DNA of 64,000 bases, taken from assembly GCA_017893485.1 (NCBI GenBank), contig CM030358.1, positions 145,094,393-145,158,392 on the forward strand, written 5' to 3'. This DNA comes from Hemerocallis citrina (Eukaryota > Streptophyta > Magnoliopsida > Asparagales > Asphodelaceae). Below the pieces are notes generated by a model. That model did no database searches, was not told the DNA's origin, and worked only from the letters and a program-made list of their open reading frames with translations. Position 1 is the stretch's first letter; every line of letters starts with the position of its first letter. Shown here piece by piece: positions 29,641 to 64,000 of the stretch. Position numbers and translations under genes: made by a program.

Positions 29641-29660
29641 CGAGGAGTCGCTTTTATCTC

Positions 29661-32092: not shown

Positions 32093-32099
32093 TTTTGTC

Positions 32100-34957: not shown

Positions 34958-34959
34958 CC

Positions 34960-36792: not shown

Positions 36793-36812
36793 CGAGCCCC
36801 CCACTCCCGAAG

Positions 36813-37205: not shown

Positions 37206-37209
37206 TATG

Positions 37210-38650: not shown

Positions 38651-38813
38651 TTGGATCCGAAGTGCCGAGCTGTTTTACTTGGGTCGAAACGTCGCTCCCT
38701 TTGCCAACAGTTGCAGTTCTCCGTAACTTAGTCGTTTGGGCTTTTGTAACGCTTCAAGGGAGGCCCAAGAGTTGCGCCCTTACGTTACAAAGCCCAAGAG
38801 GCGTCTTTTTTAT

Positions 38814-38819
38814 TATAAG
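38814..38819 (+). promoter_or_regulatory. TATA box of the element C antisense gene
   Basis: TATAAG in ttttattataagttttcac, 190 bp before the ATG at 39009. It matches the A promoter. Confidence 0.6.
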
Positions 38820-39008
38820 TTTTCACCCCCTCAACACTTCACCTCATTTCTCACTTTCACTTTCTCACTCTTGGTTTTTACTTCTTAGTAAAGTTTTTAG
38901 CTCTCGAGTGGCACTGCTAGCTGTCGCGGCAAGGCGTTTTAAGCTTCGGCGAACTTTTCCAGCCATACTAGTCACTTCAAGGTCAGACCCTCTCCTCATC
39001 TTTGTAAA

Positions 39009-41261
39009 ATGGTTAAGATTTCTTCCATGGATGAGACCCCCTCCTCGGACCGAGGCGTCAACCGAGCGGCCAATCCGAGCAAGGGTAAAGGGAAGGAGGT
39101 AGTGGAGCCGACCGAAGAGACTACGGTCAGGCCGAGTACAAATGGGGAAGTTGCCGAGCCTCTCAAGGAGGTAGTGGCCCGATCTAGCAAGGGCAAGGGT
39201 GTGGAAACCATAATCGAGCACCTGAAGACTGCAGGGGAGTTAGGTCGGCACCCGAGCACTCTGTCGAGCGTTAGCGGTGTGCGGAGCTACTCCGGGGATC
39301 TGTTGGAGAAGGTGACGCAGGCACCGCCAAGTCGATCGAGGAGAACGAACCAAGGGAAACCTCTGAGGTGGATCAGATCTCTTCGGTCCTGACCGAGGCG
39401 GATTTGCATCGGATTCGGAGCGGGTTCCAAATCTCCACGGAGTACGGGCTCCTTCTCCCTTGCCCCGGCTTCCGAGCGTGCACCTCATCCTCGGCCGATA
39501 TTTGCGTTTTTCCTGCCGACTCCCTGAATGCCGGACTTCGGCTGCCGCTGCACCCTTTCGTGGTCGAGGTGCTGCAGTGGTATGGCTTGTGTCCGGCTCA
39601 GCTGATGCCGAACACTTGGAGACACGTCATGGCATTCGTTCTTCAATGCCAGGGGGTCGGCGCTCAGCCCAACATGTTCATCCTTCGGAGTCTCTGCCGT
39701 CCTTGCCAACCAAGCAAAAATGAGCAGAGGTACTACCTCTTGCCGAGAAAGGGAGTGAAGCTGATCGAGAACCCGGACTTGATCAAGCATTGGAAGGAGA
39801 AGTACTTCCTCGTCCGAGCTCCCGAGCCATGGGTGATCCCGACGGTGTGGTCGAGGGACAGTCTGCTGAAGCGGGCGAAGAAAGAGGCCGTTTTCAGCAA
39901 CGAGGAGGCGGAAATTGTGGAGAAGTTGCTCGGGCTTCCGACCCTCAATTGGAAAGACATCACCGAGGAGGCATTATTCCGAGGGGTTCTCAGTCCAATC
40001 GACCCTAGTACGCTTCTTCAAATCTTGTTTTGTCTTTGAGGTTTTGGAAAAATTTTCTAACTTTTTTCACTCGGTTTGTGCAGAATCTCCCGGCATGGAC
40101 TACAAAGGTCTGATGGCTAAGGCACGAGCGGCTAGGGAGCAGGAGACAAGGAAGAGAAAAAGGACCGTGTCCGGACCCCAGGGCGGCCGAGCGCCCAAGA
40201 TCCCCTCGGTCTCTCCGACCCCCGAGCGGTAGGTTGTTGAGGCTCCTCTGGTCGAGTCCGAACAAAGCCTCGTCGTGCCGACCGTCCCACCTACCTCGGA
40301 TGCGCCGACCCCACCGGTGCGAACAGATGCTCCAGGGTCTTCTGGCGGAGCGTTCAACATCACCGCGGCGCTGGCTCTCGATGTCCCGCCCCTCACTGCC
40401 GAGGCGGAGGCGATTCTGACCGAGGAGCACAAGCGCATCTTCGTCCCCGACTGGCGGGTGATGAAGGTCGACAGATTCTCAGGGGACGGTAACATTTGTA
40501 TGCAGGCGGTGAAGCACCTGCCGACCCCTAAAGACCGAGCGGCGCTCAAGGCGGGTGAATTTGGTGATGCCGCGATGCAGATCGATCGGAACACTATGTC
40601 GGTAAGTAGTAGATCACTTTCTTGAGAATTTTTCTAAGTTTTTGCGCTCGTGCTTGACTGTTTCTTATATTGCTTGTAGACCCTCTACCACTTCAACTAT
40701 CTGCTCAAGGAGTTCCCTAGCAAGGAAAAAGAGATGACCGTTCTGAACGACCGGGAACGGTCGGAGAGGTCTAAGGCGGTGAAGCAGCTGGAGGCCGAAC
40801 ATTTGCATTCCACTTCGCTCGAGGCTGAGGTTGCCGACCTAAAGGCTCAACTCGCCGAGGCGCTGAGGAGCTCGGCCGCCGGGGCTTCCAAGGTTGAGAC
40901 CCTTGAAAAGGAGGCGACTCGACTCGAAGGGGAGTTGTCTAAGGCTCAGAAAGCGACGGAGGAAGCCCTGAGCGAGCAAGTGTTGAAGGTGGCGGCCGCA
41001 GAGAAGGCGGTTCGGGACGAAGCCGAGGCTCACATGTTGACCAACATGGAGGAGGCGTACGGCTGAGCGTTGAAGCATATCGTCGCTCAGAACCCTGGAT
41101 TCGACGTCTTGTCCTACTACTTCATTGACTCCGTAGAGGGTGAGGAAGAGCTGCCCTTGGCCGAGCTCGCTCCGAGGCCGGAGGGCAAAGACTCCGAAGG
41201 CGAGGGGGGTGCCGAGCGTGCGATTGTAGCTGTGCCGAGCGATGATGAGGTCGACCCCTGA
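39009..41261 (+). pseudogene. Element C antisense gene ORF1: Transposase_28-like domain plus coiled coil (three exons), decayed
   Basis: Exons are 39009-40007, 40084-40601 and 40680-41261, with introns of 76 and 78 nt at the same sites as in A. Breaks: loss of one base near 39318, TAG at 40230-40232, TGA at 41064-41066. The domain (about 39380-39845) shows FPADSLNAGLRLPLHPF, LMPNTWRHVMAF, LIKHWKEKYF and APEPWVIP. Exon 2 repeats IFVPDWRVMK, and exon 3 starts TLYHFNYLLKEF and is a coiled coil ending in an acidic tail. Both splice donors are GT and both acceptors AG in spite of the age of the copy. Confidence 0.85.
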
Positions 41262-41475
41262 CTTTGTCGCCTCTTCTAATTATCTTATTCTTCTCTCTTT
41301 TTTTTGTAATGCCTAACTGCGGACTGGCCACCGCTTTTTGTAGCTTTTGGACTTTTAATGAAATGGTTTCTTTTCGGCTGAATATTACAAAATTTCACGA
41401 AGTTATTCAACTCTTTTTGCTCGGATTGTGTCCTTAAGTGTCGAAGACTTCTTTTGATATTTTTTCGCTTTTCAG

Positions 41476-42315
41476 GTTGAGTTAGGCCCGATTACTGAGG
41501 TCTCCCATCTTCGTACTGAGCTGGAGAAAACGAAGCAGGCTCTTTCTCGCAGTCGTGATGAAGCGTTTTACAACTTCTTGAAGTTGGAGGACATTAAAGC
41601 AACCGCAAGGGGGTATTTTCGCGAGTTGAGGCAACTGCGGAAGCAATCTCGAGAGACTCGTCTCGAAGGCGAGATAGAGTTGCTCCGTAAGGCGCTCTTC
41701 GATGTCGACCAAAGGAATAGTGAGCTTCTGGCAGAGATTCGTCACTTAGAGGTAACGGTGAAAGAGCACTCGGCGGAGGAAGAGGAGTTAGCTTCAAAGG
41801 TGGGGAAGTTGATGTCTGAGCGCGATGAGTTGACGGCAAGAATTGACAAACTAAGGAGGGTCACGATCGATAGGGGTATCGAAGTGACTCATTTCTGTCG
41901 TATTGTGGCCGACAGCACTAACGTCGCAGGCTCGTCTAAACTTCCCCGTTTCAAAGTATCGGTGGAGGACGATATTCTGAGAGACAGGATCGTCGAGCTA
42001 GAGGAGGAGATTACAACGCTGAAACCTCAGCCCGTAAGGACCAACGTTCACAGTACGTCGGGTACTCGCGAAGAAAGCGAGAGAGGAATCTCGTTCTATG
42101 AACTTGCAACTCGTTCGCTCGTCGTTAGGCGGAGCCCCACTGACGCTCAGAGTGGTGTAGCTGTTTCGTCTAGCGGCGCCTCGGTTGGGGCCACAGCTAG
42201 AATTAGTGGCGAAGGGGGTTCTCGCTTTGCTGGTTTAGAGTCAAGCTCGGAGGTAAGGCGACGCTGCCTTCGTGTGTCTCTGAACCGAAGTGTTCCCCTT
42301 TCGAAGAAGCGCTAA
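41476..42315 (+). CDS. Element C antisense ORF2: coiled-coil exon, 279 codons open
   Basis: Open directly from the acceptor tttcag (41470-41475) to the stop at 42315, with no ATG near the start: VELGPITEVSHLRTELEKTK. Leu/Glu/Lys heptads run to about residue 125, then RGIEVTHFCR, a second short coiled segment (LRDRIVELEEEI), and a Ser/Gly/Ala tail. The same exon exists in A and, diverged, in D. The lack of an ATG and the conserved acceptor say it is spliced to an upstream exon. Confidence 0.65.
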   Translation, partial: VELGPITEVSHLRTELEKTKQALSRSRDEAFYNFLKLEDIKATARGYFRELRQLRKQSRETRLEGEIELLRKALFDVDQRNSELLAEIRHLEVTVKEHSAEEEELASKVGKLMSERDELTARIDKLRRVTIDRGIEVTHFCRIVADSTNVAGSSKLPRFKVSVEDDILRDRIVELEEEITTLKPQPVRTNVHSTSGTREESERGISFYELATRSLVVRRSPTDAQSGVAVSSSGASVGATARISGEGGSRFAGLESSSEVRRRCLRVSLNRSVPLSKKR

Positions 42316-42414
42316 ACAAGTTGTATGATGCTCTTCAAGTTATTATAAAAACCCTGTTGTAGTGTCAGTCCTATTTGGTCTCTTAACAAAAGAGTTTGTT
42401 TTGCTTCTTATGGG

Positions 42415-43125
42415 ACTCCGAACTCGTCGTTAGAGTTTGTTCAACGGTTGTGGGAGCAATTCCGAATGGCGACCCACTTCTAGCTCGCTTAAGAGCGAGC
42501 TTGCGGAGCAGAATCGAACCAAGTGTTGGACTCCGAACTCGCCGTTAGAATTTGTTCAACGGTTGTGGGAGCAATTCCGAATGGCGACCTACTCCTAGCT
42601 CGCTTAAGAGCGAGCTTGGGGAGCAGAATCGAACCAAGTGTTGGACTTCGAACTCACCGTTAGAGTTTGTTCAACGGTTGTGGGAGCAATTCCGAATGGC
42701 GACCCACTCCTAGCTCGCTTAAGAGCGAGCTTGGGGAGCAGAATCGAACCAAGTGTTGGACTCCGAACTCGTCGTTAGAGTTTGTTCAACGGTTGTGGGA
42801 GCAATTCCGAATGGCGACCCACTCCTAGCTCGCTTAAGAGCGAGCTTGCGGAGCAGAATCAAACCAAGTGTTGGACTTTGAACTCATCGTTAGAGTTTGT
42901 TCAACGGTTGTGGGAGCAATTCCGAATGGCGACCCACTCCTAGCTCGCTTAAGAGCAAGCTTGCGGAGCAGAATCAAACCAAGTGTTGGACTCCGAACTC
43001 GTCGTTAGAGTTTGTTCAACGGTTATTGGAGCAATTCCGAATGGCAACCCACTCCTAGCTCGCTTAAGAGCGAGCTTGCGGAGCAGAATCAAACCAAGTG
43101 TTGGACTCCGAACTCGTCGTTTGGG
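42415..43125. repeat. Element C tandem array at the convergence point (115 bp x 6)
   Basis: gcaattccgaatggc recurs at 42456, 42571, 42686, 42801, 42916 and 43031, steps of exactly 115 bp. Each unit also holds an inverted pair, agctcgctta agagcgagct. It lies between the ends of the antisense genes and pol, as in A. Confidence 0.95.
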
Positions 43126-43297
43126 TAAAGAGTAAAAGCAGAGAGATGCAAGCAATTTTACAAGTAAAATATGAAAAAACTTTCTTTATTGATAACTAAT
43201 AGTTGGCTGCTTCTAAGTTGCGAGCCGTTATTACATGAGAGAAATAAAGAAAAAAATACAAGTAAAAGGAGAGGAACGGTTCGACATCCCAGAATAC

Positions 43298-46200
43298 TCA
43301 GAGAGGCATTAATGCTCTTTCTTGGTATTTCAAAAGATGGTCGGCATTCCAAGTCCTGGGGATCTCTCTGCCTTCGAGGTCTTCTAGTCTATATGTCCCG
43401 GGCCGAACTACTTTGGCGATCTTGTAGGGTCCCTCCCAATTTGGAGCTAGTTTACTCTTTTGACCAGGAAAAGAGATCGCTAACTTTCTCAGGACCAAGT
43501 CCCCTTCTTTGAGGTCGATAGGACGGACTCTCTTATTGTATGCCAACTCGATCCTTCTTCGGTAGCTTTGTTGAAGAATGGCAGCTCTTTCACGGATCTC
43601 ATCAATCAAGTCTAGATTTGCTCGGAGCTCTCTGTCATTTTGTTCTTCTTCATAAGCCATTAGACAAGGAGAGGGTATACCAACTTCTAGGGGGATCATA
43701 GCTTCGGATCCATAGGTGAGATTGAATGGGGACTCTCCTGTGGGGGTTCGTTTTGTGGTGTGGTAGTTCCACAGCACGTTAGGGAGTTGATCGACCCATA
43801 AGCCTTTAGAGCATTTATCCAACCTCTTCTTAATACCGGAGAGGATCGGTCAGTTAGCATTCTCCACTTGGCCATTCGACTGTGGATAGGAGATGGAGGA
43901 GAAACATTGTTGGATGGCGAGGTCTTCACATAGAGCTCGGAAGGCAGCCCCGGTAAACTGGGTTCCGTTGTCTGTTATGAGGACTCGAGGGACACTGAAT
44001 CGGCAGATTACGTTCTTCCAGAAGAACTGAAGTACTTTGTTCTCGGTGATTGTCGCCAAGGGCTCGGCCTCTATCCACTTCGAGAAGTAGTCGATTGCCA
44101 CGACTAAGAATTTGAACTGGCCGGGAGCTGATGGGAATGGCCCTAGTAAATCCATCCCCCACATTGCAAAAGGGATAGGACTTGATAGGGAAGTGAGTGG
44201 AGCTTGTGGGAGGCGACGGATGTTGGAGTACTTCTGACAAGAGCTGCATTGCCGAACGTGCAGTTCGGCGTCTTGTAGGAGAGTGGGCCAGAAATATCCA
44301 TAATTCAACACTTTGCTGGCTAGGGATCTGGACCCTGAATGTGCCCCGCCAATGCCTTCGTGAAGTTCTTACAGGGCGTGGTCGGCTTGTTCCGGGGAGA
44401 GACATCTCAAATAAGGCCTGCCGTCTACTTGTGTGAAGGAGCGCTTGTATAGGATGCCCTCGATAAGTGTGTATCGCTCTGCTCAGGTTCTCACTCGGCG
44501 AGCTTCCTTAGGATCTTCGGGGAGGAGCCCATTCCTTAGGAACTCAACGAAGGGTTTCATCCAATTATCTTGAAGCAGGACGGGTAGGGACTCCAAAGAA
44601 TCGAAAGTTTCGTCTTCTATACTTGGCTTCAGGAGCACCTCAATCAAGACGGTCTGCTCGAGACCTTGGAGGGAGGAGGAGGCTAGCTTGGAGAGGGCAT
44701 CGGCCTGAAAATTCTTTTCTCGGGGGATTCGCTGGATGAGAGCTTCTTCAAACAGGGCCATGAGATTTCTGACCTTGGCTAGGTACTTAACCATTCGGTC
44801 ATCTTGTGCCTCGTACTCGCCTAGGACCTGATTCACGACTAGCTAGGAGTCGCTAAAGATCCGGAGGCGCCGCGCCCCTGCATTGCGAGCCATTCCGAGG
44901 CCAGCTATGAGTGCTTCATATTCCGCTTCATTGTTGGAGGCCTTGAAGTTGATGCGGAGAGATTATTGGAGGATGAAATCATCTGGGCCGGCCAGAATGA
45001 CCCCGGCTCCGCTTCCCTCGTTACAAGAGGATCCATCCACATAAACCGACCAGACGGGTGGTCCCTTCATTGCTTGGCTGAACTCGGGGATGGTACTTTG
45101 AACTATGAATTCAGCTAAGGCCTGAGACTTGATCGCGGTCCGAGGTTGATATGTTATATCATGCTGGCTCAGCTCGATAGACCACTTCATGAGGCGACCG
45201 GAGGTCTCTGGCTTGTGGAGAACTTGCTTCAGCGGTTGGTCGGTAAGAATGACCACCGAATGGGACTGGAAATATGGGCGAAGCTTTCTTGCAGCCATGA
45301 CTAGGGTGTATGCCATCTTCTCTATCCTCAGGCAGCGGAGCTCGGCATCCCGAAGTACCTTGCTCATGTAATATATGGGCTTTTGAGTCTTATCCTCTTC
45401 CCTTACAAGGACGGCGCTGAGGGTCTGCTCGGAGGCTGCTAGGTAGAGGTAGAGGGCTTCATCGGAAATTGGTTTACTGAGGAGAGGAGGATTAACTAGG
45501 TAAGCCTTGAGCTGGTCGAATGAATCTTGCTGCTGCTGACCCCACTCGAAGCCTTTAGCCCCCCTGAGAGCCTTGAAGAAGGGAAGGCACTTCTCCCCTG
45601 ACTTGGAAAGGAAATGACCTATGGCTGCCAGGCGACCCATTAGCTTCTGCGCCTCTTTAACATTCTTTGGGGGAGCCATATCTAATATGGCTTTGATCTT
45701 CTCGGGGTTGGCCTCGATTCCTCTTTGGCTTACCATGAAGCCTAGGAATTTCCCCGACGAGACACTGAACACACATTTGTTCGGATTGAGTCTCATACTG
45801 TGTTTTCTGAGTACGTCGAATGCCTTTTGCAGATCGACCACATGATCCGCCCCGTGGATGCTCTTCACAAGCATATCGTCAACATATACTCCATATTTCG
45901 GCCGATCTGTGCTTGAAAAACCTTGTTGACGAGGCATTGATACGTGGCACCTGCATTCTTCAAACCGAAGGGCATTACCCTATAGTAGTAGAGGCCCTAG
46001 TCGATTATAAATGAGGTCTTGGGATATCTGGGGGGAACATACGAATCTGATTGTAGACTAAGAAGGCGTCCATGAAGCTGAGGAGTTCATGGCCCGAAGT
46101 GGTGTCAATCAAAGTATCGATGCTTGGAAGAGGGAATGGATCTTTGGGGCATGCCTTGTTGAGGTCGGTAAAGTCGATACAAATCCTCCAGGTCCCATTG

Positions 46201-49065
46201 GACTTCTTCACCATCACTACATTCGAGAGCTATTCAGGATAGTTTACCTCTTGTATGAACCGGGCCTTCAAGAGCTTGTCCACTTCCTCTTTTATAGCTT
46301 ATTGGCGCTCGGGAGCGAACTTGCGCCTCTTCTGTTGGACCGGTTTGGACCCCGGAGCAACGCTGAGGTGGTGGACCAAGAGCTTTTCGGAAATTCCAGG
46401 CATGTCTGCAGCCGACCATGCAAAGAGGTCTCGGTTCCTTCGGATGCACTGGACTATGTCGGAGCATAGGGCGGATGGGAGGGTCTTGCTAACAAAGAAC
46501 TTTCGGCTTGGATCCTGCTCAGAGAAGAGCACTTCCTCCAACTCATCCACTGGCTCGGACGTTGGTCGGGCAACATCATGGGGGATTTTCAGAGTTTCGA
46601 GGGAGAGGACTGGACCCAGGGTAGAGGTTATGTAGCATTTGCGGGCTGTTTTCTGATTGCCTTTTACTTTCCCTACTCCTGCCCGAGTGGGAAACTTCAT
46701 CTTGAGGTGATAGGCGGAAGGGACGGCTTCAAGAGCTGCTAAGCCGGGGCGACCCAAAATGACATTGTAAGCTGCAGGGACCATTACGACCATAAAGTCC
46801 ATCGACTCCGTTCGGGTAGCAGGAGTTTTGCCAGCGGTTACGTCGAGGGTGATCATCCCTTCAATAGTCATTGGCACTCCCGTGAACCCATGGAGTGTGT
46901 AGCTGGCGGGTTTGAGTCTGTCTCGTGATAGCTTGAGGCCTTGGAAAGAGGCGAGGAAGAGGATGTTAACGGAGCTGCCATTGGAGATTGATGACAAGTG
47001 CGTCACAATGGGGGGTTCGGACACCCTCAAGGTCTTCATCTGAGAATGTGACAGGCACTCCGAGGCCTTTAGGAGGAGGTGTGGCGCGAACCGAATTGAC
47101 TTCCCTTATAAATGCCTTCCGAGAGGAGTTGAAAGAGCCCCCCATTGGGCCCCCATGAATGAGGTGTAGGACACGTTCCTCTTCGAATTCGGGCGTTTCA
47201 TCGCGTTCAGGACACTTGTTAGCCCCCCGAGGCGGGGGAGGAGGATCGGTTCGGTCCTTTCTCACGAACCTGTTTAGCTGACCCCTTTGGATGAGGGCTT
47301 CTATCTCGTTCTTCAGGGCCCGACAATCATTGGTGTCGTGGCCATGGTCCCGGTGATAACGGCACCACTTCTCTTTATCCCTCTTCTTGCCAGGGGTGTT
47401 CATTTTTGGCGCAGGAGGTATCACCCCCTCCTTCTCAACTTCCATGAGAATTGTGGAGATGTTGGCGTTCAGAGGAGTAAACTTTTCAAATCTGGGGGGG
47501 GGTCGGTGTTGCCCGCCATTATCCTTCTGGAGCTTCTTGGCCCCTTCTTCTTCTGTTCCCTTTCTCTTAGACTCGGAGGAAGACCCCTCCAAGTTGGGGC
47601 GGTGCTCAGCTTCTTTGGCCCGAATATACTTTTCGCTCCGGATGAGGAGGTCAGAGAAGTTCTGTGGGGGCTTCTTGGTGAGGGAGGAGCGAAGGCTGGA
47701 GTTGAGGACATTGGATTGGAATGCTACTGCAGCGACCGACTAGTCGAGGGATGCTATGGACCTGGCTTCCGCTGTGAACCTTTTCACATAGTCTCTGAGC
47801 TTCTCACCCTTCTTCTGGTTGAGGTAGAGTAGCGAAATACTGGTCTTCTCAGTTCGGCAGCTACTCGCGAAATGGGTGACGAAGAGGGTCTCAAATTGCT
47901 CGAAGGAGAATATTGAGGATGGGGCAAGGCGAGAGTACCGTTCTCGAGCCGGACCCTTGAAAGTTGCGGGGAAGGTCTTGCATAGTAGAGCATCAGAAGC
48001 TTGGTGGATGAGCATGAGGGTCTTAAAGCTTTCGATTTGATCGACGGGATCAGACTCCCCAGAATAAGTCTCGAATTGAGGAGGTTTAAAGCCAATTGGT
48101 ACGGGTGCCTCCATTATAGTTCGGTAAAAAGGAGGTCGACTCGGGCGAAGGGTTCTTCCTCTAAGCTCTTCTTCCCTGTCTAACTGACCCAAGCGCCTCT
48201 CCATTTCATGGAGACGGCGGTAGACAACGTCATCCCTTTGACGGTAATCAACCGAGCCTCTAGACTCGTCTTCGTACGAGGGAGAGCGGGGGCTACGATG
48301 ACGGTAGTTCCTATAGCGGCGAGGACTAGGAATGTGCCGGGGGTTGCTAGGAACTGGGGAAGGAGTTAGGGACCGTCGGTGAGGACTTCGGACCGGAGGA
48401 GGAGTGGGAATCCTTGGAGCATTGGTGTTGTTGGGACGGAGATTGAGAGCTTGTAGGATGGTTGCTTGGAATTGCTGGAACTCGGCACGGGTGATGGGTG
48501 CCTCATCGTTCCTTGGATGTTGCCGATCGGCAGGGGAATGGGGACTTCTCCTGTGATGCTCGGGGGACTCTCTCCGCCCCCTTCGGGTAGGGGACCATCT
48601 GTAGTCTCGGTGGTGAGGAGATCGCTCATCCGGACGTTGTTGGCGGGAGGCTCCCTCTCGGGCCTGCTTTTCATCCAGACGGCGGCGAAGATCCTTATCC
48701 TTCTGCCGATTGAGGATGGTATTGCGAAGGTCGGAAGCTCGGGGATTGTGGGAGGCCATAGAATCCGAAGAGGCATTGTGGATTGAGACGTGGTCCTGAT
48801 GGGGATGTTGTTTCTGTGGGTTGGGATGCGAGACCCCTGCACCGGCATGTTGAGGACCGGGGGGACCCTTAGGAGGTTGTTGGTTTTGAAGAGGAGGCTG
48901 GTCCTGTTGAAGAGGGTCCTCGGCTTGAGGCGGAAGTTGCCCCTGCTGCTGAGCAGGTTGGAATCGTTGGATGGGGACTTCCTGTTGCTGATCGGGGTTG
49001 GGTCCACGGTTGGACCCTCTGGATCTTACTTTCCTAGGAGGCATGGCTGGAGAAGATCTGACCAA
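43298..49065 (-). pseudogene. Element C gag-pol polyprotein, decayed
   Basis: The ATG at 49044 (MPPRKVRSRG) is the start matching A; an in-frame ATG lies at 49065. gag is open for 441 codons to a TAG at 47740 (former Gln codon) and continues in frame to 46966 with the knuckle CRYHRDHGHDTNDC. In the protease about 48 bp are lost, so residues before NGSSVNILF, including the catalytic Asp, are missing. RT: a TAG in place of Trp near 46230, frameshifts near 46025 and 45890; YVDD is at about 45890. RNase H has TAG in SDS-stop-LVVNQV at the same codon as A (about 44840). Integrase pieces (44311-43850 and 43822-43298) show VAIDYFSKWIEAEP and ITDNGTQFTGAAF. Confidence 0.92.
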
Positions 49066-49101
49066 CGGGAAGAGGGGAAGCTGCTATTCGTTTGCTTTCC
49101 A

Positions 49102-49114
49102 CAGACGGCGCCAA
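49102..49114 (-). other. Element C primer binding site
   Basis: TTGGCGCCGTCTG on the minus strand, next to the 5' LTR; TGGCGCCGT fits tRNA-Asp. Confidence 0.8.
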
Positions 49115-49116
49115 TC

Positions 49117-49708
49117 TGTTACCGCTAAATCTGGTGTGGGGGCAAACAGATAGTATTTGTGGATTCTTGAAAAACTTTGAATAGCAAACCTGTTACCTAT
49201 TCCGCCAGAGTTTGACCGTTGACTTTCGCCGTTCACCTGCAAAAAGTGCTAGACACCAGGGTTGATCCCAACGACGCACCCTCCAACGCTCAAGTCAGTA
49301 ATCAGGGAGATTATGAAAAAGTGTAAATTGGCAAAAGATTGATTACCTCCTAATAGAGATGGATGGGGGGTATTTATAGCCGCCGCTGGGGTCAGATTAG
49401 GAATGTAATCCCTGTGGTTAGATAAGGAATGTAATCCCTAATCCCCAATGAAAGGATAGATATGAATTAGGGTCGTTGATTAGGATTAATCAGAAACCCT
49501 AATTCTACCCTGCTAGACTGGGTTTGCTGCGGGTTGAAACCCGCACCTAGTTGAGGTGGATCCGTTCGCGGGTTAATGGTTCTTCGAGGAGGAGAACCAG
49601 TACCCGCTTCAGACCCATTGGTAGGTGAAATTACCATTTTATCCCTAAGCTTTAAGATTCGTTTCTGATTTGGATGGTTCTGATTTAACCCCATTTTTAG
49701 CCATATCA
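49117..49708 (-). repeat. Element C 5' LTR
   Basis: 592 bp. The TATA box (CTATAAATA, minus) is at about 49371-49379. Confidence 0.93.
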
Positions 49709-55060: not shown

Positions 55061-55859
55061 TGATGCGGTTTATTTCTGGGAGACGTGTGGATGCACCAGG
55101 TGTGAGTTCGGACTCGATTTGTATTTGAAGGAGAATGCTGCTCGTCTGCCGACCCTTGACTGACCGGGTGGAGTTCGTGGCGACCTCGGGGTGGCTCGGA
55201 GATCTGGGCTCGGATCAGAGGATTCGGATCTGAGGTCTTGTGTACCTGCAGACGGTCCTGAAACACCGGGATTTGTCCCGGTGGCGGACCCTCCGACGAT
55301 CTAGTCAGTCTCTGTGAGAGAGTAGCAATAACTAGGTGAATTTAAGTGGCAAAAGATTGATTACCTCCAAAAGGTGGTGAGGGTCTAGTATTTATAGAGA
55401 ATCCCAACCGGGTTTGGATCCGTTTGGGGGCCGGGTCTGAACCTGAAAGCCCATGGGCCTGTCGTGGCATAAGGCCCAGGGGGTTTAGGGCTGACGTGGC
55501 AATACCAGGAGTGGTATAGGGCTGACGTGGCAAAGCCCTGAGCGGTATAGAGCTGACATGGCTGATCGTGGGTCTTTTGTGCTTCTGGGAGAATCGGAGG
55601 GCCTAGGCTGCGCCAGGTCAACCCCCTGCTTTGCTAGAGAGAGGGGGAGGGGCGGCTTATGGGGCTGTCACGGGTCAGAGACCGAGGACAACTGAGGCTC
55701 GTCGGATACGAGGAGGCTGGCTCCGGGGGGGGTGCACTTGAGGTTCGGTGCCGACCCTGTAATGGTTCGAAGCCGAGCTAGATTGCTATTTTTACCTTTC
55801 TCGAGGGAGCGTTGTATTGGGCCCTGGTTGGGCCCGCAGGCCATTTTTACACTACCACA
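55061..55859 (-). repeat. Element D 3' LTR
   Basis: 799 bp, homologous to the B LTRs. The TATA box (minus) is at 55389-55397. ACGTGGC words at about 55495 and 55526 remain from an array of four. Its inner end adjoins the polypurine tract (CAGGAGTGGGGGGCTTG on minus). Confidence 0.93.
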
Positions 55860-55949
55860 CAAGCCCCCCACTCCTGCGGGGGGTGCGGGAGCTAGCCGGG
55901 GAGGAGTGTTCATGGTTGTGGAAATGGGATGGCAAATCGTTGAATCGTC

Positions 55950-56760
55950 CGGAGGAGAGTATCCTGGTGCCCGGCCCAGCCTCGATATGACGAGGGATTA
56001 CGCGTTTGACAAAGGCGATGCGAGACGTTGTTTCTCCCTGAGAAGGAGGCCCTGGTGCACGACCGAACCTCGAGATGACGAGGGTTTATGTGTCGGCAAG
56101 GGTGATGGCGAGCCGTTGCTTCTTCCTGAGAAGAGTACCCTGGTGCCAGACCGAACCTCGTGATGAGGAGAGATTATGGGTCGGTAAGGGTGATGGCGAG
56201 CCGGTGATTCTTCCTAAGAAGAAGGCCCTGGTGCTCGACCGAACCTCGAGATGACGAGGGATTATGTGTCGGCAAGGGTGGTGGCAAGCCGTTGTTTCTT
56301 CCTGAGAAGAGTACCCTGGTGCTCGACCGCACCTCGAGAAGACGAGGGATTATGTGTCGGCAAGGGTGATGGCGAGCCGGTGATTCTTCCTAAGAAGAAG
56401 GCCCTGGTGCTCGACCGCACCTCGAGATGACGAGGGATTATGTGTCGGCAAGGGTGATGGCGAGCCGTTGTTTCTTCCTGAGAAGAGTACCCTGGTGCAC
56501 GACCGCACCTCGAGAAGACGAGGGATTATGTGTCGGCAAGGGTGATGGCGAGCCAGTGATTCTTCCTAAGAAGAAGGCCCTGGTGCTCGACCGCACCTCG
56601 AGAGGACGAGGGATTATGTGTCGGCAAGGGTGATGGCTAGCCGTTGTTTCTTCCTGAGAAGAGTACCCTGGTGCACGACCGCACCTCGAGAAGACGAGGG
56701 ATTATGTGTCGGCAAGGGTGATGGCGAGCCGGTGATTCTTCCTGAGAAGAAGGTTTGAAC
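55950..56760 (+). repeat. Element D tandem array: 88-bp monomers (about nine)
   Basis: The anchor ctcg in acctcgaga or acctcgtga recurs at 56069, 56157, 56245, 56333, 56421, 56509, 56597 and 56685, steps of exactly 88 bp. Alternate monomers resemble each other (gtgattcttcctaaga against ttgtttcttcctgaga), so the dimer order of B is visible here too. Confidence 0.95.
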
Positions 56761-56935
56761 CGTGTGGTCTGTCGCTTTAGCGGAGTCTTGATGGTGCTTC
56801 CGGGATTCGTGTGATGGTCCATTTTTCCAGGGGCATTAAATGACGCTGCCAGCCTGGACGCAGGTGGCGCATGGGCTTCCGCAGATTGGCTTTCCCAATG
56901 TCATAAAGGCGGGTCTTGGGGGAGGCTATAAATAC

Positions 56936-56944
56936 CTCTCCCTC
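56936..56944 (+). promoter_or_regulatory. Distal TATA box upstream of the element D antisense gene
   Basis: CTATAAATA in ggaggctataaatacctc, preceded by ccaatgtcataaaggc. It is the same context as B 28833. Confidence 0.55.
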
Positions 56945-56949
56945 CCCTG

Positions 56950-57530
56950 GCGGGTTTGATCACAGCAAGGGTGGTTCAACGGCCCCCTGAGGTGTCTGCT
57001 TCGGCGGGTGTCTCTCTTCTAGAAAACTTTGTTATGGCGCCAAGGGGCCTCGAATCGGTGGCGACTCTGCCGTCTGGATCCTTTCTCGGGTCAGACGACT
57101 CTCATGCGGATGTCTGGCCCGAGAAAGATCGGGACGGGAGGGGCATCCATCGTGTCCTGGCTCTGGGGGTGAAGAGCCTCGGATATGCGGATCGATCTTT
57201 ATTCTTGGTAGGGTTCTAGGTGATGGTGGCTTTCCTCCCACCCTCGAACAATTCGGGGTTTCGGTCGACGAGGCCTTAAGTCCCGATCTGTTCGAGGGTG
57301 AGAGAGGAGCCGACCGAGCTCTGGAACCTGGGGCGCAGGCGGTGGTGGCTTTCCTGCCACCCGGGAACGATTTGGGGTTTTCGGCTGCCGAGGCTGTAAG
57401 CCCCAAGTTGTTCGCGGGTGAGAGGGGAGCCTGCCGAGTCCTGTAGCCTTAAATCTAAAAAAAAAATTTCGCTGAGCACTTCATCCGGCCCGAACCCTGT
57501 GTCTGGTTGCCAGCCTGGCACTGGATGACG
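56950..57530 (+). other. Element D leader region with a two-copy repeat
   Basis: Units of about 118 bp at 57222-57337 and 57345-57450 share tggctttcctsccaccc and gggtgagagrggagcc. No convincing gene. Confidence 0.6.
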
Positions 57531-57535
57531 TCAGA

Positions 57536-57543
57536 AGCCCATG
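57536..57543 (+). promoter_or_regulatory. Perfect TGACGTCA palindrome in the antisense-gene promoter of D
   Basis: The bZIP-type palindrome lies about 95 bp before the proximal TATA box, with a further gaggacgtggc at about 57549. B has the decayed forms tgatgtca and gaggatgtggc at the same places. Confidence 0.5.
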
Positions 57544-57632
57544 TTTCGAGGACGTGGCACAGTTTTCTAGGCGGCCGCTACACGCCAATCGGTGAACAGT
57601 AATTGCAGAAATCGAGGAGTCGTTTCTTCCCT

Positions 57633-57640
57633 CTATAAAT
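57633..57640 (+). promoter_or_regulatory. Proximal TATA box of the element D antisense gene
   Basis: CTATAAAT, 171 bp before the ATG, in a context nearly identical to B (aaatcgaggagtcg before, CT-rich after). Confidence 0.65.
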
Positions 57641-57803
57641 GTTCCCCCCTCTCCTCCTATCGTCCACTTCTCACTTCGCCTCTTTCTCTTCCTAACAGAT
57701 TTCCCAACATCTCAGTCTTCGTTCCTACCCTTCGCTGTATCAAGTTCGTTCTTCCGAGGCGACCCCCGGTCTGTTGGTAAGTTTGTTTTTAGTTTAGGCA
57801 TAG

Positions 57804-59985
57804 ATGGATAGGGCTCAGTCGGGCTCGTTGGCATCGTCGTGTGGGGGGGGTGCAAATTCCGCCTCCAGACTGACTTTGCGGGAGGAGTCGGATCTCGAGG
57901 GGGAGTCTGTTGGTGAGGAACAGCCAGTGTATGACGTGAAGCCGCTGCGGTCTCGGAGGCTTTTTGTTGTGGAGAGTAGTGATTCTGAGGAGGAGGGGGG
58001 TGGTAGTTCTGCCGAAGTTCAGATTCTACGGATGGTTTCTGGAGAGGAAGGGGGAGCCGAAGGGGCTCAGATAGGAGGTCAGGGCGTGGGCTCGAGCTCC
58101 ATGCCGATAGGTCTGGGGCGACTATCTACCCCCTCCCCTGAACGGACCAAGAAGAAGAAGAGGGCTCCGAAGAAGCGGGGGTCGAGGATTGGGGGCTCGA
58201 GTCAGGCGCCTGTTGACTTGACGACAGGGTCACCCCTACGGTCTAAGCCGTTCCGTCGGTACCCCGACGATCTTTCTGATAAGGAGGAGTGTGGGGTTCA
58301 ACCGTCGTCGCCGAGCCGGAAGAAGGTGATAATGGACGCATTTCCGACCGTTCTAGAGGCAGGTAACTTAGAGGCTTTGCGGTTGGCATACCATATAGGG
58401 TCCGGCTATGAGCTCATGTTGCCGAGCTCCACTCTTCGACCGACTGACCCTCTGCCGGATCAGTATTGCGTCTTCCCCGTGGATGCCTTTATCTCTGGCT
58501 TTAGGTTGCCCGTTCACCCGTTCGTCCGAGAGGTGCTGAACTGGGCGTCCTTGGCGCCGATGCAGTACGGGCCCAATTCCTGGAAGCAGATCATCTGCTT
58601 CGTGTTGTTGTGCGGGGAGCAGAGGGTACCTCTTCGGTTGAACGTCTTCCGAGCGATGATGATGATTGGTTCGTCGGCTGAGGGTATCTATTACATTTCG
58701 CCCCGGGGCAAGTCGAAGTTTGTTCATGGTCACCCGGACTCCATCAAGGAGTGGAAGAAGAAGTATCTAGTGATCCGGAGTGAGGAACCTTGGGATATTC
58801 CCACTCGGTGGAATCACTATAAGCCGAGCTATAAAACGCCGAGGTCGAGGGACCTGACTGCCGAGGAGTGGGGTTTTGTTGAGCGTCTCCGTTTGTCATA
58901 TAGCGTCGACTGGGCGAAGGTGACCGAGGGCCACTTGACGAATGCCGGACTGAGCCCGGCCGATCCATGTATGTAGTTGTTTCTTTCTTTTTGGCGTTGT
59001 TGTTCCTCCGTGCTCATTGTCCTTACTGGACTTTTTCACAGGTATGGATCCTGAGTCGATTAAGGCGAGGAGGCGCGAAATGAAAAAGGAGGAGACCGAG
59101 AGGAAGGCGAAGACGAGGGGGTCGTCCCAGGGGGTTATCGAGGCCTCTGTTCAGCCGAGGGCAAAAAGGACTCGCTCGGAGACGGTCCAGGACGCGGCGG
59201 TTCAGGGCGATCCGGACCAGGGTAAGGTAACCGATCTTGATAAGGGGAAGGGCCCTCCGGCGGATCCGGAGATAGAGGAGAGGCTCCGGCGGCCGTGGGT
59301 GCCGGATTGGTCGATTCGCGAGGGAGACAGTTTGACCCGAGGGCGGCAAGCCGTCGAGGTGGCGAGTAAGTTGGCGACCCCCCGGGATCGCTCGGAGATG
59401 AAGGCCGAGTCCCTGGACGCGGCGTATACACGCCTCGCACAGGCCAATGTGCTGGTAAGTTTGTCAACCTCTCTTGTTCCGCAATCACGTTGTAAAGGAG
59501 GCTTCCTTAGTTGTGCTTGGTGATTACAGGCGACCGTGCAGGGGGCCCACGTGAAGGGCCTTTACGAGGCTGCTTTGAAGCGGGAGCGCGATAGGGCGGA
59601 CAAGGCCGAGCAGGAGACGAAGGTGATGAAGACAGAACTCGAAGGCTCTCAGAAGAGGGAGCAAGAGATGAAGGCGGCATTCGACAAGGAGAGGGGGGAA
59701 TGGGCGGAGAAGATGGCGGCCCAGGAGAAGGAGTTTGCCAAGGAGCTGAAAGAGTTGACAAAGACGAGTCAGCTTCTGGTGGTCAAGGCCCAAGACGAGT
59801 GTTATGCGAAGGCACTCAGCCACGTGAAGCACTTCCACCCGGCCCTTGATCTGTCGAACTTCGAGTATGACATGGAGGTCGACGGGACACTGAAGATTCC
59901 CAGCGAAGGAGCTGCTCCCGACCCACCCGTCGACCCCCTCGTGGACCCGCATACCGATGCAGAGGTGGGAAAACAGACTGTGTAG
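57804..59985 (+). CDS. Element D antisense gene ORF1, intact: Transposase_28-like domain plus coiled coil, 677 aa in three exons
   Basis: Exons 57804-58968, 59042-59454 and 59530-59985 join without any stop or shift; introns of 73 and 75 nt start gtatgt and gtaagt and end cacag and tacag, phases 1 and 0. Residues 1-160 are acidic/Ser-rich with a KKKRAPKKR patch (possible nuclear signal); about 193-335 is the conserved domain (FPVDAFISGFRLPVHPF, YGPNSWKQIICF, DSIKEWKKKYLVIRSEEPW); exon 2 is basic with MKKEETERKAK and ends near WVPDWSIREGD; exon 3 is a coiled coil, then DECYAKALSHVKHF and an acidic Pro/Asp tail. It is transcribed opposite to the retroelement. Function unknown; a DNA- or RNA-binding helper of the element is one possibility. 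Confidence 0.9.
58969..59041 (+). other. Element D antisense gene intron 1
   Basis: 73 nt, phase 1, pyrimidine-rich before the acceptor. Same site as in A, B and C. Confidence 0.88.
59455..59529 (+). other. Element D antisense gene intron 2
   Basis: 75 nt, phase 0, gtaagt to tacag. Same site as in A, B and C. Confidence 0.88.
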
Positions 59986-60200
59986 TTTTTGGTCTTTCTA
60001 TTTTCTCCCCTCGATTGTATTTGCCTTCTGCGGACTGGCCACCGCATTTTTTGTAAGAAGTGATTCGATTTTCAGAATAAAAATGATTTTTGACCGGCCA
60101 AGTGTTTTGACTTCGGGTGTTTCCTGGCTCTCCTTGCCTATGCGTTTTGAGTTGGCCGGTTTTCTTGTGGGCTGCGGATCTTCTTCCCGAGGCGGACCCC

Positions 60201-60710
60201 CGCCGCTCCGACGTGGCGTGGCTCCAGAGCAAAGTTGAGTCCCTGGTGGCCACGTTGGTTCGCTACCGAAAGGGGGCTTGTGATACTGACGCGGCTCTTA
60301 ATTATTACCGGAATAAGTCTGAGGCCTTGAGGGAGGAGGCGAGCCGGCTGAGGAGGGCGATGGTGGAACGGGACCTAGGAGGCGTCGGTTTTGGACATAC
60401 CATGTCGAACGCCTCGGTGCAGAGGCCCCCTTCCGAGAGGTTACTTCGTGATGTCATAGTGGAGAAGGAGATGGAGATACACCGCTACAAGACGATGCTG
60501 GGCGTCTCGTCCTCTTCTTCCGTGGGTCGGCGAGCGGATGGAGTTCCTTCCGCGCTGCTCCTGCTGGAGCGCATGCGACCGGGGGATACTCAGAGCTCCG
60601 TGGCTGGTGCGTCGACCGCGGCTGAGCCGGTGGACCGGGATGACGATGAGAGGGCTCCTAGCCGTTCGGTCGGAGTGGTCCTGCCCTTTGTTGGACCCCC
60701 GGGGCCCTAA
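60201..60710 (+). CDS. Element D antisense ORF2: coiled-coil exon
   Basis: The frame is open from 60117 to the stop at 60710, but similarity to ORF2 of A and C is clear only from about 60216 (VAWLQSKVESLVATL). It shares with them RRAMVERDLGGVGF, matching the RRIMIDRGIEVTHY type, and LLRDVIVEKEMEIHRYK. There is no convincing ATG for this region, so entry by splicing is likely; cggacccccgccgctccgac upstream offers no obvious acceptor. It is deleted in B. Confidence 0.5.
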   Translation, partial: RRSDVAWLQSKVESLVATLVRYRKGACDTDAALNYYRNKSEALREEASRLRRAMVERDLGGVGFGHTMSNASVQRPPSERLLRDVIVEKEMEIHRYKTMLGVSSSSSVGRRADGVPSALLLLERMRPGDTQSSVAGASTAAEPVDRDDDERAPSRSVGVVLPFVGPPGP

Positions 60711-61198
60711 GATGGTAGCTTCCTTCGGCTTGAGATGAGGGGAGCGGTCCTGTAACGGTCATTACTTGTTTTTTCATACTCAACTAAAGGTATGAATAAA
60801 GAATTCTTTTTTCCCTTTCGCTTTACTTAGGAATGCGGTAAGCGTTGGCGGAGGCGCGGTTCGGCTTCTTTGGTTTGTGAGGGATCAACGCGGGGCCTTG
60901 GGAAGGGCCCCTGGCCCGAAGCTGGGTTGGGCCTACCGAGGTACTGAGGACGGTACCGGAGTGAGGGTTCGGGGACCGCTCCCGATGTTGGGCGTTTAAG
61001 TTGGATCTGCCGAATCATTTGGGGTTTTGTCAAAAAAAGAAAAACAAGGGATTCCTTTCATACCAGATGGGGGGGGGGGGGTCGTCGAAGCCGCCCTTTA
61101 CATATGAGAGTTTACAAAGGGTTTTTCATACAATAGCCAAGTTAGACCTTATGTATGCTTCTCTAGGAACTTCGTTAGGGGCTCGGCGTTTGGTTAAG
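60711..61198. other. Element D untranslated region between ORF2 and the pol remnant
   Basis: No gene. A polyadenylation-like gaataaaga is at about 60794, after ORF2. A G-run (61070-61081) and cctttacatat correspond to a similar stretch in B (32525-32560). Confidence 0.55.
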
Positions 61199-61545
61199 GA
61201 TCTTCGGATGGGAGTGGCCCAGGGCTGGTGTCATCTTGAAGCCAAGTACCGAAGACCAGAAGCCGGAGGTGATGGACTTCCATGAGTACTGTCTGATCGA
61301 GACCCTCGAAGGAGGAAGGGGCGAGTTTGGACGGTGCGTCTGCTTGAGCGTTCTGTGCCCGGGGGACTCTGCTAACTGTGGCGCAGCTGAAGGATGCCGG
61401 GGGTCGTTGGACTGTCGTCGAGCCTCCAATCATGCACTCATCGCTGGCCTCGTATTCCCTGGTGATCTGTTTGACCATGAGCTGGGATTTGCTGAAGAGA
61501 TCCCAGATACGTCGGAGGGCTTTTAAGCGAAGATATCTTCGTTGC
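61199..61545 (-). pseudogene. Element D RNase H C-terminal remnant
   Basis: FSKSQLMVKQITREYEASDECM and, after a shift, QNAQADAPSKLAPSSFEGLDQTVLMEV correspond to the end of RNase H in A (SDSQLVVNQVLSEYEACDD ... NAQADALSKL). Here the conserved Gln codon is CAG. RT and the first part of RNase H are missing between this and the protease, which places one deletion edge. Confidence 0.8.
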
Positions 61546-61583
61546 GGCCTACGCGGGCGGTGCTGCGAGCGGCTTATCCGGAA

Positions 61584-63845
61584 CTACTTTGATTCCTCCT
61601 TGGCGTCGAACAGGGCCTCTTCTGGTTCGTCGAAAGGCTCGGGAGCTGGGCCATCTCTCTCGGGTGCGAGTTCGGTGGCGTCGAGAGGGAACACACCCTC
61701 TCCGACGGCCGTCATATAGCACGACTGCGCGACTTCATGGCTCCCTCGGGCGATGCCTACCCCTTGGTGGGTGGGGAATTTGAGTTTTAGATGGTAGGCC
61801 GAAGGCACCGCTTGGAGGGAGGTCAGTCCAGGTCGGCCGAGAACGGCGTTGTAAGCTGTCTTGAAGTTGACAATCATGAAGTCCATGAATTCGGTCCTCT
61901 CGACAGGAGCCGACCCTGCGGTGACCTCGAGGGTAACAATCCCTTCTATTGCGACAGGGGCGCCGAAGAATCCATGCAACGGGTATCTGGCGGGCTTGAG
62001 CTTTCCACCGGGTAATTTGAGGCTCTCGAAGGTTTTGCGGAAAAGAATATTAACTGAGCTACCGTTGTCAACGAGGATTCGGCGTACCTCGCAGTTAGCC
62101 ACGTGGAGGCTGATGACGAGGGCATCGCAGTGGGGTAGGTGAACGTCTTCGAGGTCTTCTTCTGAGAAGCTGACTGGCCCCGGCTGTGGCTTGGACGAGG
62201 GGTTGTTTTGGACAGCATTCGCCTCTTGGAGGAGGGCTTTTCGGGCTGTATTTGACCCTCCCCCTATCGGCCCTCCGTGGACATAGTGCAAGATGAATGG
62301 CGTGTCCGTGGTTCCCTTGGACCCGAGATCCTGTTCACGGAGGTGGGTCGTCGTATGGTTCGGGGGCGAGAGTCTCCGTCTCCTGTCGTCTTGCCGATCC
62401 CGGCGGCCTTCTCGGGTGAACTGCCGGAGGAACCCTTGTGAGACGAGTTCCTCAATTTCGTCTTTCAGGGCTCGGCATTGATTGGTATCGTGCCCATGGT
62501 CTCTGTGGAAGCGACAGTAGAAGCGCTGGTCTTGATTCCTGTTGCCATTAGGTCGGGGAGGTAGTCGGACGATGCCTTCGTCTTCGACTTCCAAGAGGAT
62601 GGCGGATAGGTTGTGGGTCAAGGGAGTGTATCTCTCGGAGCGGGGGACCGGCGGGACCTTCTTCATGGCCCCCGCGCCCCTCGGAGCTTTCTTTGATGGT
62701 TCGACCTCTCCGACCTTCCTCTTTCCCTTGTCGATGGCCTCCCGGGTATCTTCAGGATTAAGGGCCTCTTCTGCCCTGATGTATTTTTAGACCCTGTTGA
62801 GGAGATCGGGAAAGTCGACGGGGGGCCTCTTCGCCAGCGAAGCTTTCAGCTGTCCATGACGAACGTTGTGCCGAAAGGCCGCCGAGGCAACGCCTGGTTC
62901 AAGAGAGGGGACCGACCTCGCCTCCGTAGTAAATCTTCGGACGAACACTCTGAGGGATTCTCCCTCTATCTGCTTGAGCCCCAGTAAAGAAGCGCTAGTT
63001 CTCTCCGCCTTCCGGCTGGTGACGAAGTGGGCGAGAAAATTGCCCTCTAGTTGGTCGAAGGAGTAAATGGAGCCGGGAGCGAGCTTTGAGAACCATTCAC
63101 GAGCCGGACCTCGAAGGGTGGCCGGGAAGGCTCGGCACAGCAGGGGATCTGAGGCGCTGTGAATCATCATGAGGGTCTTGAAGCCCTCCACGTGATCAGC
63201 AGGATCTCCCTCGCCGTCGTAGGTCTCGAACTGAGGAAGTCGGAAGTCCCGGAGTATTTCTGCCTGGAGGATGGGGGCGGAGAAGGGAGGTCGGATAGGT
63301 CTGTACCCCTGAGCCGCTCTTTGGCCGTCGTCCCCTATGTGATCGAGGCGATCTTCCATTCCTTGGAGGCGCCTTAAGAGTATGTCATTGCCTTCTGGCT
63401 GGATTGTTGATGGTCGGGACATGCTGGCCTCGGAGTCCGACCTGGTTTGGGAACGGAGTGTTTCTCCCCTGGGGGCCCGTCGGAGGGCCCCGAGAATTTC
63501 TCTTCGGAAGTCCTGGAACTCCTCCTGAGTGACGGGGGCTCCCTCGACCCTGTTGGGCTGGCCAGCAGGCTGCCTTCTGATACGGCTGAGTGCGGGCCTC
63601 CGTCTCTCGGGCGGTGGTCGTGGATGGTTCGGGGCCGGGTTGGAAGCGGCCCTTCCCCTGCTGCGGGTGATTTGACGGTTAACGATTATTCCTCGTAGGT
63701 CGGGCTGGACCGTACGGGTGGCGCTTTGCCGGGATCCCTGACGGGAATCCCCATGCCTTGATGCGCGTGGCCCGGCATTGGTATTTGGTGGGGGTGTGTC
63801 CCGTCGGTTGACGGTGGACGCGGCCTCCTGGCCCCTGGAGGCCAT
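61584..63845 (-). pseudogene. Element D gag-protease, one stop
   Basis: From the ATG at 63845 (MASRGQEAAS) one frame runs to 61584 with a single TAA at 62787-62789. gag core: FKTLMMIHSASDPLL and GPAREWFSKLAP; knuckle CRFHRDHGHDTNQC (Cys-X2-His-X4-His-X4-Cys); protease with [13 protein letters not shown] and FGAPVAIEGIVTL; the frame ends FDAKEESK. The protease is intact here, unlike in B. A longer reading from a TTG inside the primer site is not needed. Confidence 0.9.
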
Positions 63846-63910
63846 AGGAGTTCGGCTACCGAGGTCGCTCGATGGTTGGGCTCGGATCGGCTTCTGAAGC
63901 AAAGTTCCCA

Positions 63911-63923
63911 CAGACGGCGCCAA
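63911..63923 (-). other. Element D primer binding site
   Basis: TTGGCGCCGTCTG (minus), two bases from the LTR. TGGCGCCGT fits the tRNA-Asp 3' end. Confidence 0.8.
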
Positions 63924-63925
63924 CC

Positions 63926-64000
63926 TGATGCGGTTTATTTCTGGGAGACGTGTGGATGCACCAGGTGTGAGTTCGGACTCGATTTGTATTTGAAGGAGAA
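63926..64000 (-). repeat. Element D 5' LTR, first 75 bp visible
   Basis: Identical over all 75 visible bases to 55061-55135. The rest is beyond the window. Confidence 0.93.

What the first reader, a model, noticed from the sequence alone, without database searches (positions are those of the whole stretch)
57804..59985. An intron-containing gene carried antisense inside four retrotransposons, open in D
A, B, C and D all carry on the opposite strand a gene with three exons and two introns of 73-92 nt. Both introns sit at the same places with the same phases (1 and 0) in two families whose LTRs do not resemble each other. Every donor is GT and every acceptor AG, even in the oldest copy. In D the spliced frame is open for 677 codons. 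A retroelement normally loses introns when its RNA is copied; antisense introns are not recognised in the genomic RNA, so this orientation may be what lets the gene keep them. Antisense extra ORFs in TAT-lineage elements, and the Transposase_28 family name, are known; the spliced structure with its own promoter is what I see here. The function is unknown.
Basis: partly seen in the sequence, partly recalled or inferred. Interest (0 to 1): 0.85.

Follow-up and report, generated by a model that had tools for sequence, protein, structure and literature searches.

The report
Spliced reverse-strand gene inside retrotransposons
Several related jumping elements in this large genome carry, on the strand opposite to their own genes, an old gene that still has two introns at fixed places and looks kept by selection; the gene family was known, its split structure appears not to have been described.

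Summary
A, B, C and D each carry on the + strand, antisense to their own genes, a Transposase_28 (TRP28, PF04195) gene with two GT-AG introns (8 of 8; 73-92 nt; phases 1 and 0); D's joined frame is open for 677 codons. In the 3.78-Gb host genome intron 1 is present in 65 of 65 copies read and intron 2 in 62 of 62 judgeable ones, in three families. D-type exon1-exon2 and exon2-exon3 joins have 0 genomic matches against 1776 unspliced exon1-intron1 joins. dN/dS of the joined frame is 0.28; shifted frames give about 1. Grass TRP28 proteins imply a phase-1 intron at the same spot. No RNA was seen, so splicing is inferred. Known: antisense TRP28 ORFs typify Retand elements, and maize Grande's gene23 has its own promoter. 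Not found in the papers I could search: the introns. A 17-nt 3'UTR element of these genes has 25,297 genomic matches (control 1). Against forced splicing: in the third family both introns are stop-free multiples of three.

The parts
55061..64000 (-). Element D, non-autonomous, continues about 0.73 kb past the window; left LTR 55061-55859
   Evidence: LTR match to L051 926-1726, 98.9%; gag at 62787-63923
57634..57641 (+). TATA-like box of D, about 170 bases before the ATG; inferred promoter
   Evidence: Matching box in B at 29662; unchanged CTCTATAAATG in 29 of 30 close copies
57804..58968 (+). Exon 1 of D: acidic N-terminus and TRP28 domain
   Evidence: model of residues 178-389 pLDDT 85.8
58969..59041 (+). 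Intron 1 of D, 73 nt, GT-AG, phase 1
59042..59454 (+). Exon 2 of D, begins just before Met-Asp
59455..59529 (+). Intron 2 of D, 75 nt, GT-AG, phase 0
59530..59985 (+). Exon 3 of D with stop codon; Lys/Glu-rich, looks like a coiled-coil tail
   Evidence: coiled coil judged by eye
60029..60045 (+). 17-nt 3'UTR element of D
61584..62666 (-). Protease-region frame of D (sense)
   Evidence: tblastn to A pol residues 32-396; no match to residues 397-808
62787..63923 (-). gag of D (sense)
   Evidence: PF03732
29819..32092 (+). TRP28 gene of B; introns 31014-31086 and 31527-31603; one stop in exon 1
26799..35751 (-). Element B, non-autonomous (gag and protease region only)
   Evidence: LTRs 26799-27592 and 34958-35751, 99.4%
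12834..14920 (+). TRP28 gene region of A (decayed; true start not determined, end approximate); introns 13573-13647 and 14166-14257
9901..24003 (-). Element A with reverse transcriptase and RNase H
   Evidence: LTRs 9901-10501 and 23401-24003, 97.2%; Pfam
39368..41260 (+). TRP28 gene region of C (decayed; start not determined, end approximate); introns 40008-40083 and 40602-40679
36200..49708 (-). Element C, with pol pieces
   Evidence: LTRs 36200-36792 and 49116-49708, 94.4%

Best explanation
This is a real, old, intron-bearing accessory gene of Retand-like Ty3/gypsy elements, placed antisense between pol (in B and D, the gag-protease part) and the 3' LTR. It is most likely transcribed on the + strand from an internal promoter (TATA seen in B and D), spliced of two short introns and polyadenylated in its own 3'UTR, giving a protein of about 680 residues: acidic N-terminus, folded TRP28 domain, Lys/Glu-rich tail. 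In the element's genomic RNA the introns read as their reverse complement and should not be recognised, and the spliced antisense mRNA lacks the LTR ends and primer site, so each round of reverse transcription copies the introns intact. I expect the protein to act in the nucleus as a regulator of the element. Shown: gene structure, intron conservation, constraint on the joined frame, no spliced D-type joins in the genome. Inferred: transcription, splicing, promoter, protein function.
For: Same sites and phases in A, B, C, D. Intron 1 in 65 of 65 and intron 2 in 62 of 62 judgeable copies: A, B, C; 30 of 30 close D copies including D; 20 of 20, one breaking off inside intron 2; 8 A-type copies, 6 of them reaching intron 2; 4 of a third family. 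Spliced joins 0 and 0, unspliced first join 1776, reversed control 0. dN/dS 0.28 in frame, 1.01 and 0.93 in shifted frames; D-B 0.20, A-C 0.18. In 19 copies of the second set splice bases differ from D in 2 of 152 cells, other intron bases in 411 of 2506. Grass proteins imply the same phase-1 intron before Met-Asp. From papers: own promoter and nuclear product of Grande gene23 (PMC7264820, passages).
Against: No RNA evidence. By columns the splice sites are not significantly more constant (0 of 8 against 33 of 132, p = 0.20). In the third family both introns are stop-free multiples of three in 4 of 4 copies. No TATA box in the stretches scanned for A and C. Most copies read are broken: 7 of 30 and 3 of 20 have the joined frame open from start to stop. 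In D alone 112 intron pairs would do. The unspliced control for junction 2 did not complete.
Confidence: 0.75

Rival explanations
1. The introns are real relics, but the working product is the unspliced first frame (about 390 residues with TRP28) or, in the third family, the whole unspliced frame; splicing no longer matters.
For: TRP28 lies wholly in exon 1 and is the most constrained part (0.15); the third family is open unspliced for 585-700 codons in 4 of 4 copies. PMC11963269 describes single ORFs only.
Against: Exons 2 and 3 are constrained in the joined frame (0.39 and 0.27), although the unspliced D frame stops at codon 391; splice dinucleotides stay intact in 119 of 120 cases in close copies.
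Confidence: 0.13
2. The antisense RNA, not the protein, is what matters: it pairs with the sense RNA and tunes silencing.
For: Suggested as a possibility in PMC7264820 (passages); the TATA box and 3'UTR element are kept.
Against: A pure RNA role does not explain dN/dS of 0.28 with shifted frames near 1.
Confidence: 0.07
3. The introns are chance GT-AG pairs that happen to keep the frame open.
For: 112 two-intron models of D would be open.
Against: Same sites and phases in three families and in grass proteins.
Confidence: 0.03
4. A host gene was captured recently by one element and spread by recombination between families.
For: Grass TRP28 proteins look like tandem host genes (names; inference).
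Against: A/C and B/D proteins are far apart on the tree (branches 0.75 and 1.33) and cross-family introns are 49-61% identical, so sharing is old; antisense TRP28 is reported in 97% of Retand clusters (PMC11963269).
Confidence: 0.02

Closest known systems
Retand-lineage elements with antisense TRP28 ORFs (Vicient 2025, PMC11963269; parts 1-3 of 5 read; term search)
   Same: Antisense TRP28 (PF04195) ORF between pol and 3' LTR, tandem repeats there, some non-autonomous families with gag and protease but no RNase H or integrase
   Different: The paper reports single ORFs found with ORF Finder; in the held text 'intron' occurs 0 times and 'splic' and 'exon' only in references. Here the gene has two conserved introns and a longer protein
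gene23 of maize Grande (described in PMC7264820, passages; the 2013 original is not held)
   Same: Antisense gene with its own promoter; nuclear protein
   Different: Whether gene23 has introns is unknown to me
Intron of Ogre elements (PMC6317226, passages)
   Same: A spliced intron in a Tat-lineage element
   Different: Ogre's intron is in the sense RNA between gag-protease and RT; these are in an antisense gene
HBZ of HTLV-1 (named in PMC11963269; that HBZ is spliced is recalled, from no call)
   Same: Antisense nuclear regulator of a retroelement
   Different: No sequence relation tested; HBZ is read from the 3' LTR (recalled), this gene apparently from an internal promoter
Grass TRP28 proteins such as Os06g0165300 (P0060) and LOC101759474 (P0032)
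   Same: TRP28 domain; implied phase-1 intron directly before Met-Asp
   Different: About 30% identical to D in the domain; no firm homology of the tails; apparently chromosomal gene clusters; their DNA was not seen

Membership tests
Transposase_28 (PF04195) | Profile score above Pfam's cut-off | tested here: met
   D 52.3, A 49.6, C 49.9 bits, cut-off 26.2; B by homology to D only
Retand lineage (Ty3/gypsy, Tat) | Antisense TRP28 gene between pol and 3' LTR | tested here: met
   A, B, C, D: TRP28 on +, gag-pol frames on -, gene on the 3' LTR side
Retand lineage (Ty3/gypsy, Tat) | RT phylogeny within Retand | not tested
   No RT tree was built; B and D lack the RT core
Grande gene23-type accessory gene | Transcribed from its own promoter | tested here: inconclusive
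   TATA in B and D, none in the stretches scanned for A and C; no RNA
Grande gene23-type accessory gene | Nuclear protein | not testable with these tools
   No localisation data
Ogre-type intron | Intron in the sense RNA between gag-protease and RT | tested here: not met
   These introns have GT-AG on the strand opposite to gag-pol; a separate sense intron was not looked for
Grass TRP28 gene family | Intron 1: phase 1, directly before Met-Asp | tested here: met
   Inferred from peptides: KG|MD in spliced models, KGK, KGN, KGEH in read-through ORFs, three with the intron kept in frame; D and B T|GT ATG GAT and C|AT ATG GAT. In A, C and the third family the split codon lies a few codons further upstream of Met-Asp
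Grass TRP28 gene family | Intron 2: phase 0 before the tail | tested here: inconclusive
   Read-through ..LQ|V.. in P0079, P0107, P0115; about four codons from D's site in the alignment; tails without firm homology

The most novel reading that the evidence does not exclude
An old cell-type gene with introns lives in reverse inside a whole lineage of LTR retrotransposons and is tied to that orientation, because only there do its introns survive reverse transcription. Grass TRP28 genes that look like tandem host genes share its first intron, so either the element took the gene from a chromosome as DNA, or hosts took it back with its introns. The 17-nt 3'UTR element kept in some 25,000 copies belongs to the same circuit, as a binding site for the protein or an RNA-processing signal.
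Probability: 0.35. Interest if true: 0.8.

Novelty: new variant of a known kind. Interest (0 to 1): 0.6.

Why it matters
Retroelements usually lose introns from whatever they reverse-transcribe. A gene that keeps two introns across families by sitting on the opposite strand is a natural mirror of the laboratory retrotransposition reporters. It makes the question of why these elements carry an antisense gene testable: for D-type genes neither splice join occurs in the genome, so a spliced read would be genuine expression. If right, surveys that count single ORFs have missed the second half of the protein, and TRP28 may not be confined to transposable elements.

Tried and rejected

Papers: listings; passages or sections. 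None of what I saw describes introns in antisense TRP28 ORFs. The Grande 2013 paper and the DOI I tried for the Steinbauerova survey are not held, and the RIRE2 and Retand originals were not sought by id, so a printed description there cannot be excluded.

Full report
What is there. The window (48% G+C) lies at 145.09-145.16 Mb of contig C1 of a 3.78-Gb assembly of 701 contigs; C1-C11 are 217-472 Mb long. I did not identify the organism. Four LTR elements lie on the minus strand: A 9901-24003, B 26799-35751, C 36200-49708 and D from 55061 to about 0.73 kb past the window end. A and C carry RT and RNase H. D has gag, the protease region and only the edge of the RT frame, with no tblastn match to residues 397-808 of A's 808-residue pol frame; B has gag and the protease region. 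So B and D look non-autonomous. Each element has a plus-strand TRP28 gene on the 3' LTR side.

Gene structure. D's three exons join to 677 codons. The eight introns are in the observation check: all GT-AG, phase 1 then 0. Cross-family intron identity is 49-61% in the pairs compared. An open joined frame alone would not prove this: 112 two-intron models of D stay open.

Genomic copies. The TRP28 part of D gave 150 scored matches out of 55,450 loose candidates. I read 50 of the 150: the 30 best (D among them) and 20 chosen from the weaker ones. Both introns are present in 30 of 30, with 119 of 120 splice dinucleotides intact, and in 20 of 20 (77-91% identical to D; L047 breaks off inside intron 2), with 77 of 80 intact. 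Without L047, splice bases differ from D in 2 of 152 cells and other intron bases in 411 of 2506; by columns with at least two differing copies 0 of 8 against 33 of 132, p = 0.20, because columns are few and copies related. With A as query, 150 scored of 57,292 candidates, I read 8: intron 1 in 8 of 8; L055 and L058 are interrupted before intron 2; the other 6 have it, one with its donor changed to AT. With the grass protein P0032 as query, 79 scored of 46,495, a third family appeared; of it I read 4, picked for their long frames: both introns present, 84 and 75 nt, GT-AG, phases 1 and 0. Together with A, B and C this is intron 1 in 65 of 65 and intron 2 in 62 of 62 judgeable copies. In the third family both introns are multiples of three without stops in 4 of 4, so the gene is one open frame of 585-700 codons. 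These four were picked for long frames, so how common this is in the family is not known.

No processed D-type copies. The exon1-exon2 join has 0 genomic matches with up to 2 mismatches; the exon1-intron1 join has 887 + 889 = 1776, reversed control 0. The exon2-exon3 join has 0; its unspliced control did not complete. A-type and third-family joins were not searched. This fits the orientation argument, but does not show that splicing happens.

Selection. Pairwise NG86 dN/dS: D-B 0.20 (N-terminus 0.23, TRP28 0.08, exon 2 0.44, exon 3 0.24; dS above 1 in most parts, so rough), A-C 0.18. Between the two D-like sets, 120 random pairs of real copies (30 and 17; L035, L038 and L047 left out) give 0.28 overall: N-terminus 0.42, TRP28 0.15, exon 2 0.39, exon 3 0.27. 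On 60 of these pairs frames shifted by one and two give 1.01 and 0.93; reverse-strand frames 0.98, 0.43 and 1.18, the 0.43 being, by my reckoning, the frame whose third positions coincide. Pairs share copies and are not independent. Copies were chosen by TRP28 similarity, which biases that part low but not exons 2 and 3. Of variants shared by at least two of 30 copies, 35 were nonsynonymous and 33 synonymous in exons 2 and 3, expected ratio 2.5-2.7.

Open or broken. Of the 30 close copies 9 have no internal stop and a frame of 3n, and 7 of these (D included) keep both start and stop; of the 20 others 3 are open. Most copies read are decayed.

Relatives elsewhere. The third protein search scored 7996 candidates and found 242 relatives; 120 were listed, the named ones all grasses, but one query row was a grass protein. 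Spliced models read ..KG|MDPSVY; read-through ORFs, mostly on short contigs, end in KGK, KGN, KGEH and the like, as a phase-1 GT donor gives. In P0079, P0101 and P0115 the intron is kept in frame, 72, 84 and 84 nt by my count of residues. That is the phase and place of intron 1 in B and D, directly before Met-Asp. Read-through ends ..LQ|V.. (P0079, P0107, P0115) point to a phase-0 intron about four codons from D's second site in the alignment; the tails themselves show no firm homology. Neighbouring locus tags on one contig (for example VPH35_135587, 135589, 135606, 135614) suggest tandem host genes; I did not see their DNA. In a tree of 70 of 122 domains the 66 grass-like proteins form one side and the four element proteins the other, support 100/99; the root is not known. 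If they are host genes, this bears on the statement in PMC11963269 that no TRP28 similarity was found outside transposable elements.

Domain. The model of residues 178-389 is confident (pLDDT 85.8, pTM 0.84) but matches no solved or viral fold. DNA binding is predicted for TRP28 in PMC11963269; I did not test it.

3'UTR element. TGCGGACTGGCCACCGC follows D's stop by 43 bases: exact in A, C and D, three mismatches in B; chance expectation for the window 0.12. The genome has 12,588 + 12,709 = 25,297 matches with at most one mismatch, reversed pattern 0 + 1. Among the D-like copies 16 of 30 have it exactly, while the second set mostly reads C at its first base (14 of 20 so). I read 20 exact places, the first listed on C1: all 20 have GTA..GCC shortly before and AATGAAA, AATAAA or a near variant after it, by eye; 8 of 20 match the gene end of A or D over long stretches by blastn, 12 do not. 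In the third family 3 of 4 copies have it with one mismatch, 85-90 bases after the stop. The 20 were chosen by exact match, so their identity is no evidence; the shared setting and the genome count are.

Mechanism and standing. My reading is a spliced antisense accessory gene, probably encoding a nuclear regulator. Known already: antisense TRP28 ORFs in Retand (PMC11963269; PMC6317226 gives 23% of Retand elements), own promoter and nuclear product for Grande (PMC7264820). Not found in the searches named under Tried and rejected: the introns. RNA is the missing proof.

Noticed in passing
60029-60045, 41318-41334, 14971-14987, 32139-32155: 17-nt element TGCGGACTGGCCACCGC after the stop of the TRP28 genes; 25,297 genomic matches with at most one mismatch against 1 for the reversed pattern. 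Function unknown.
   Followed up: partly
L085-L088: Third TRP28 family whose two introns are both stop-free multiples of three, so the gene is open with or without splicing.
   Followed up: partly
P0001-P0120: Grass TRP28 proteins with neighbouring locus tags on single contigs look like tandem host genes and imply the same first intron.
   Followed up: partly
15227-15877, 16068-16586, 41578-42315, 60117-60710: Further + strand ORFs next to the TRP28 genes; A's 216-residue one has a 73% relative in C, D's 197-residue one has no relative in the window. Possibly second antisense genes.
   Followed up: no
27638-28729 and 55844-56861 (88 nt); 42298-43172 (115 nt); 16793-17458 (111 nt); 11243-12211 (223 nt): Tandem repeat arrays inside the elements, as reported for Retand elements in PMC11963269.
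   Followed up: no
57845-57860: G run early in exon 1 near an indel shared by several close copies whose joined frame stops at codons 23-25; that the run is the cause was not checked.
   Followed up: no
233-1531: ORF with a hAT dimerisation domain (PF05699), a DNA transposon piece.
   Followed up: no
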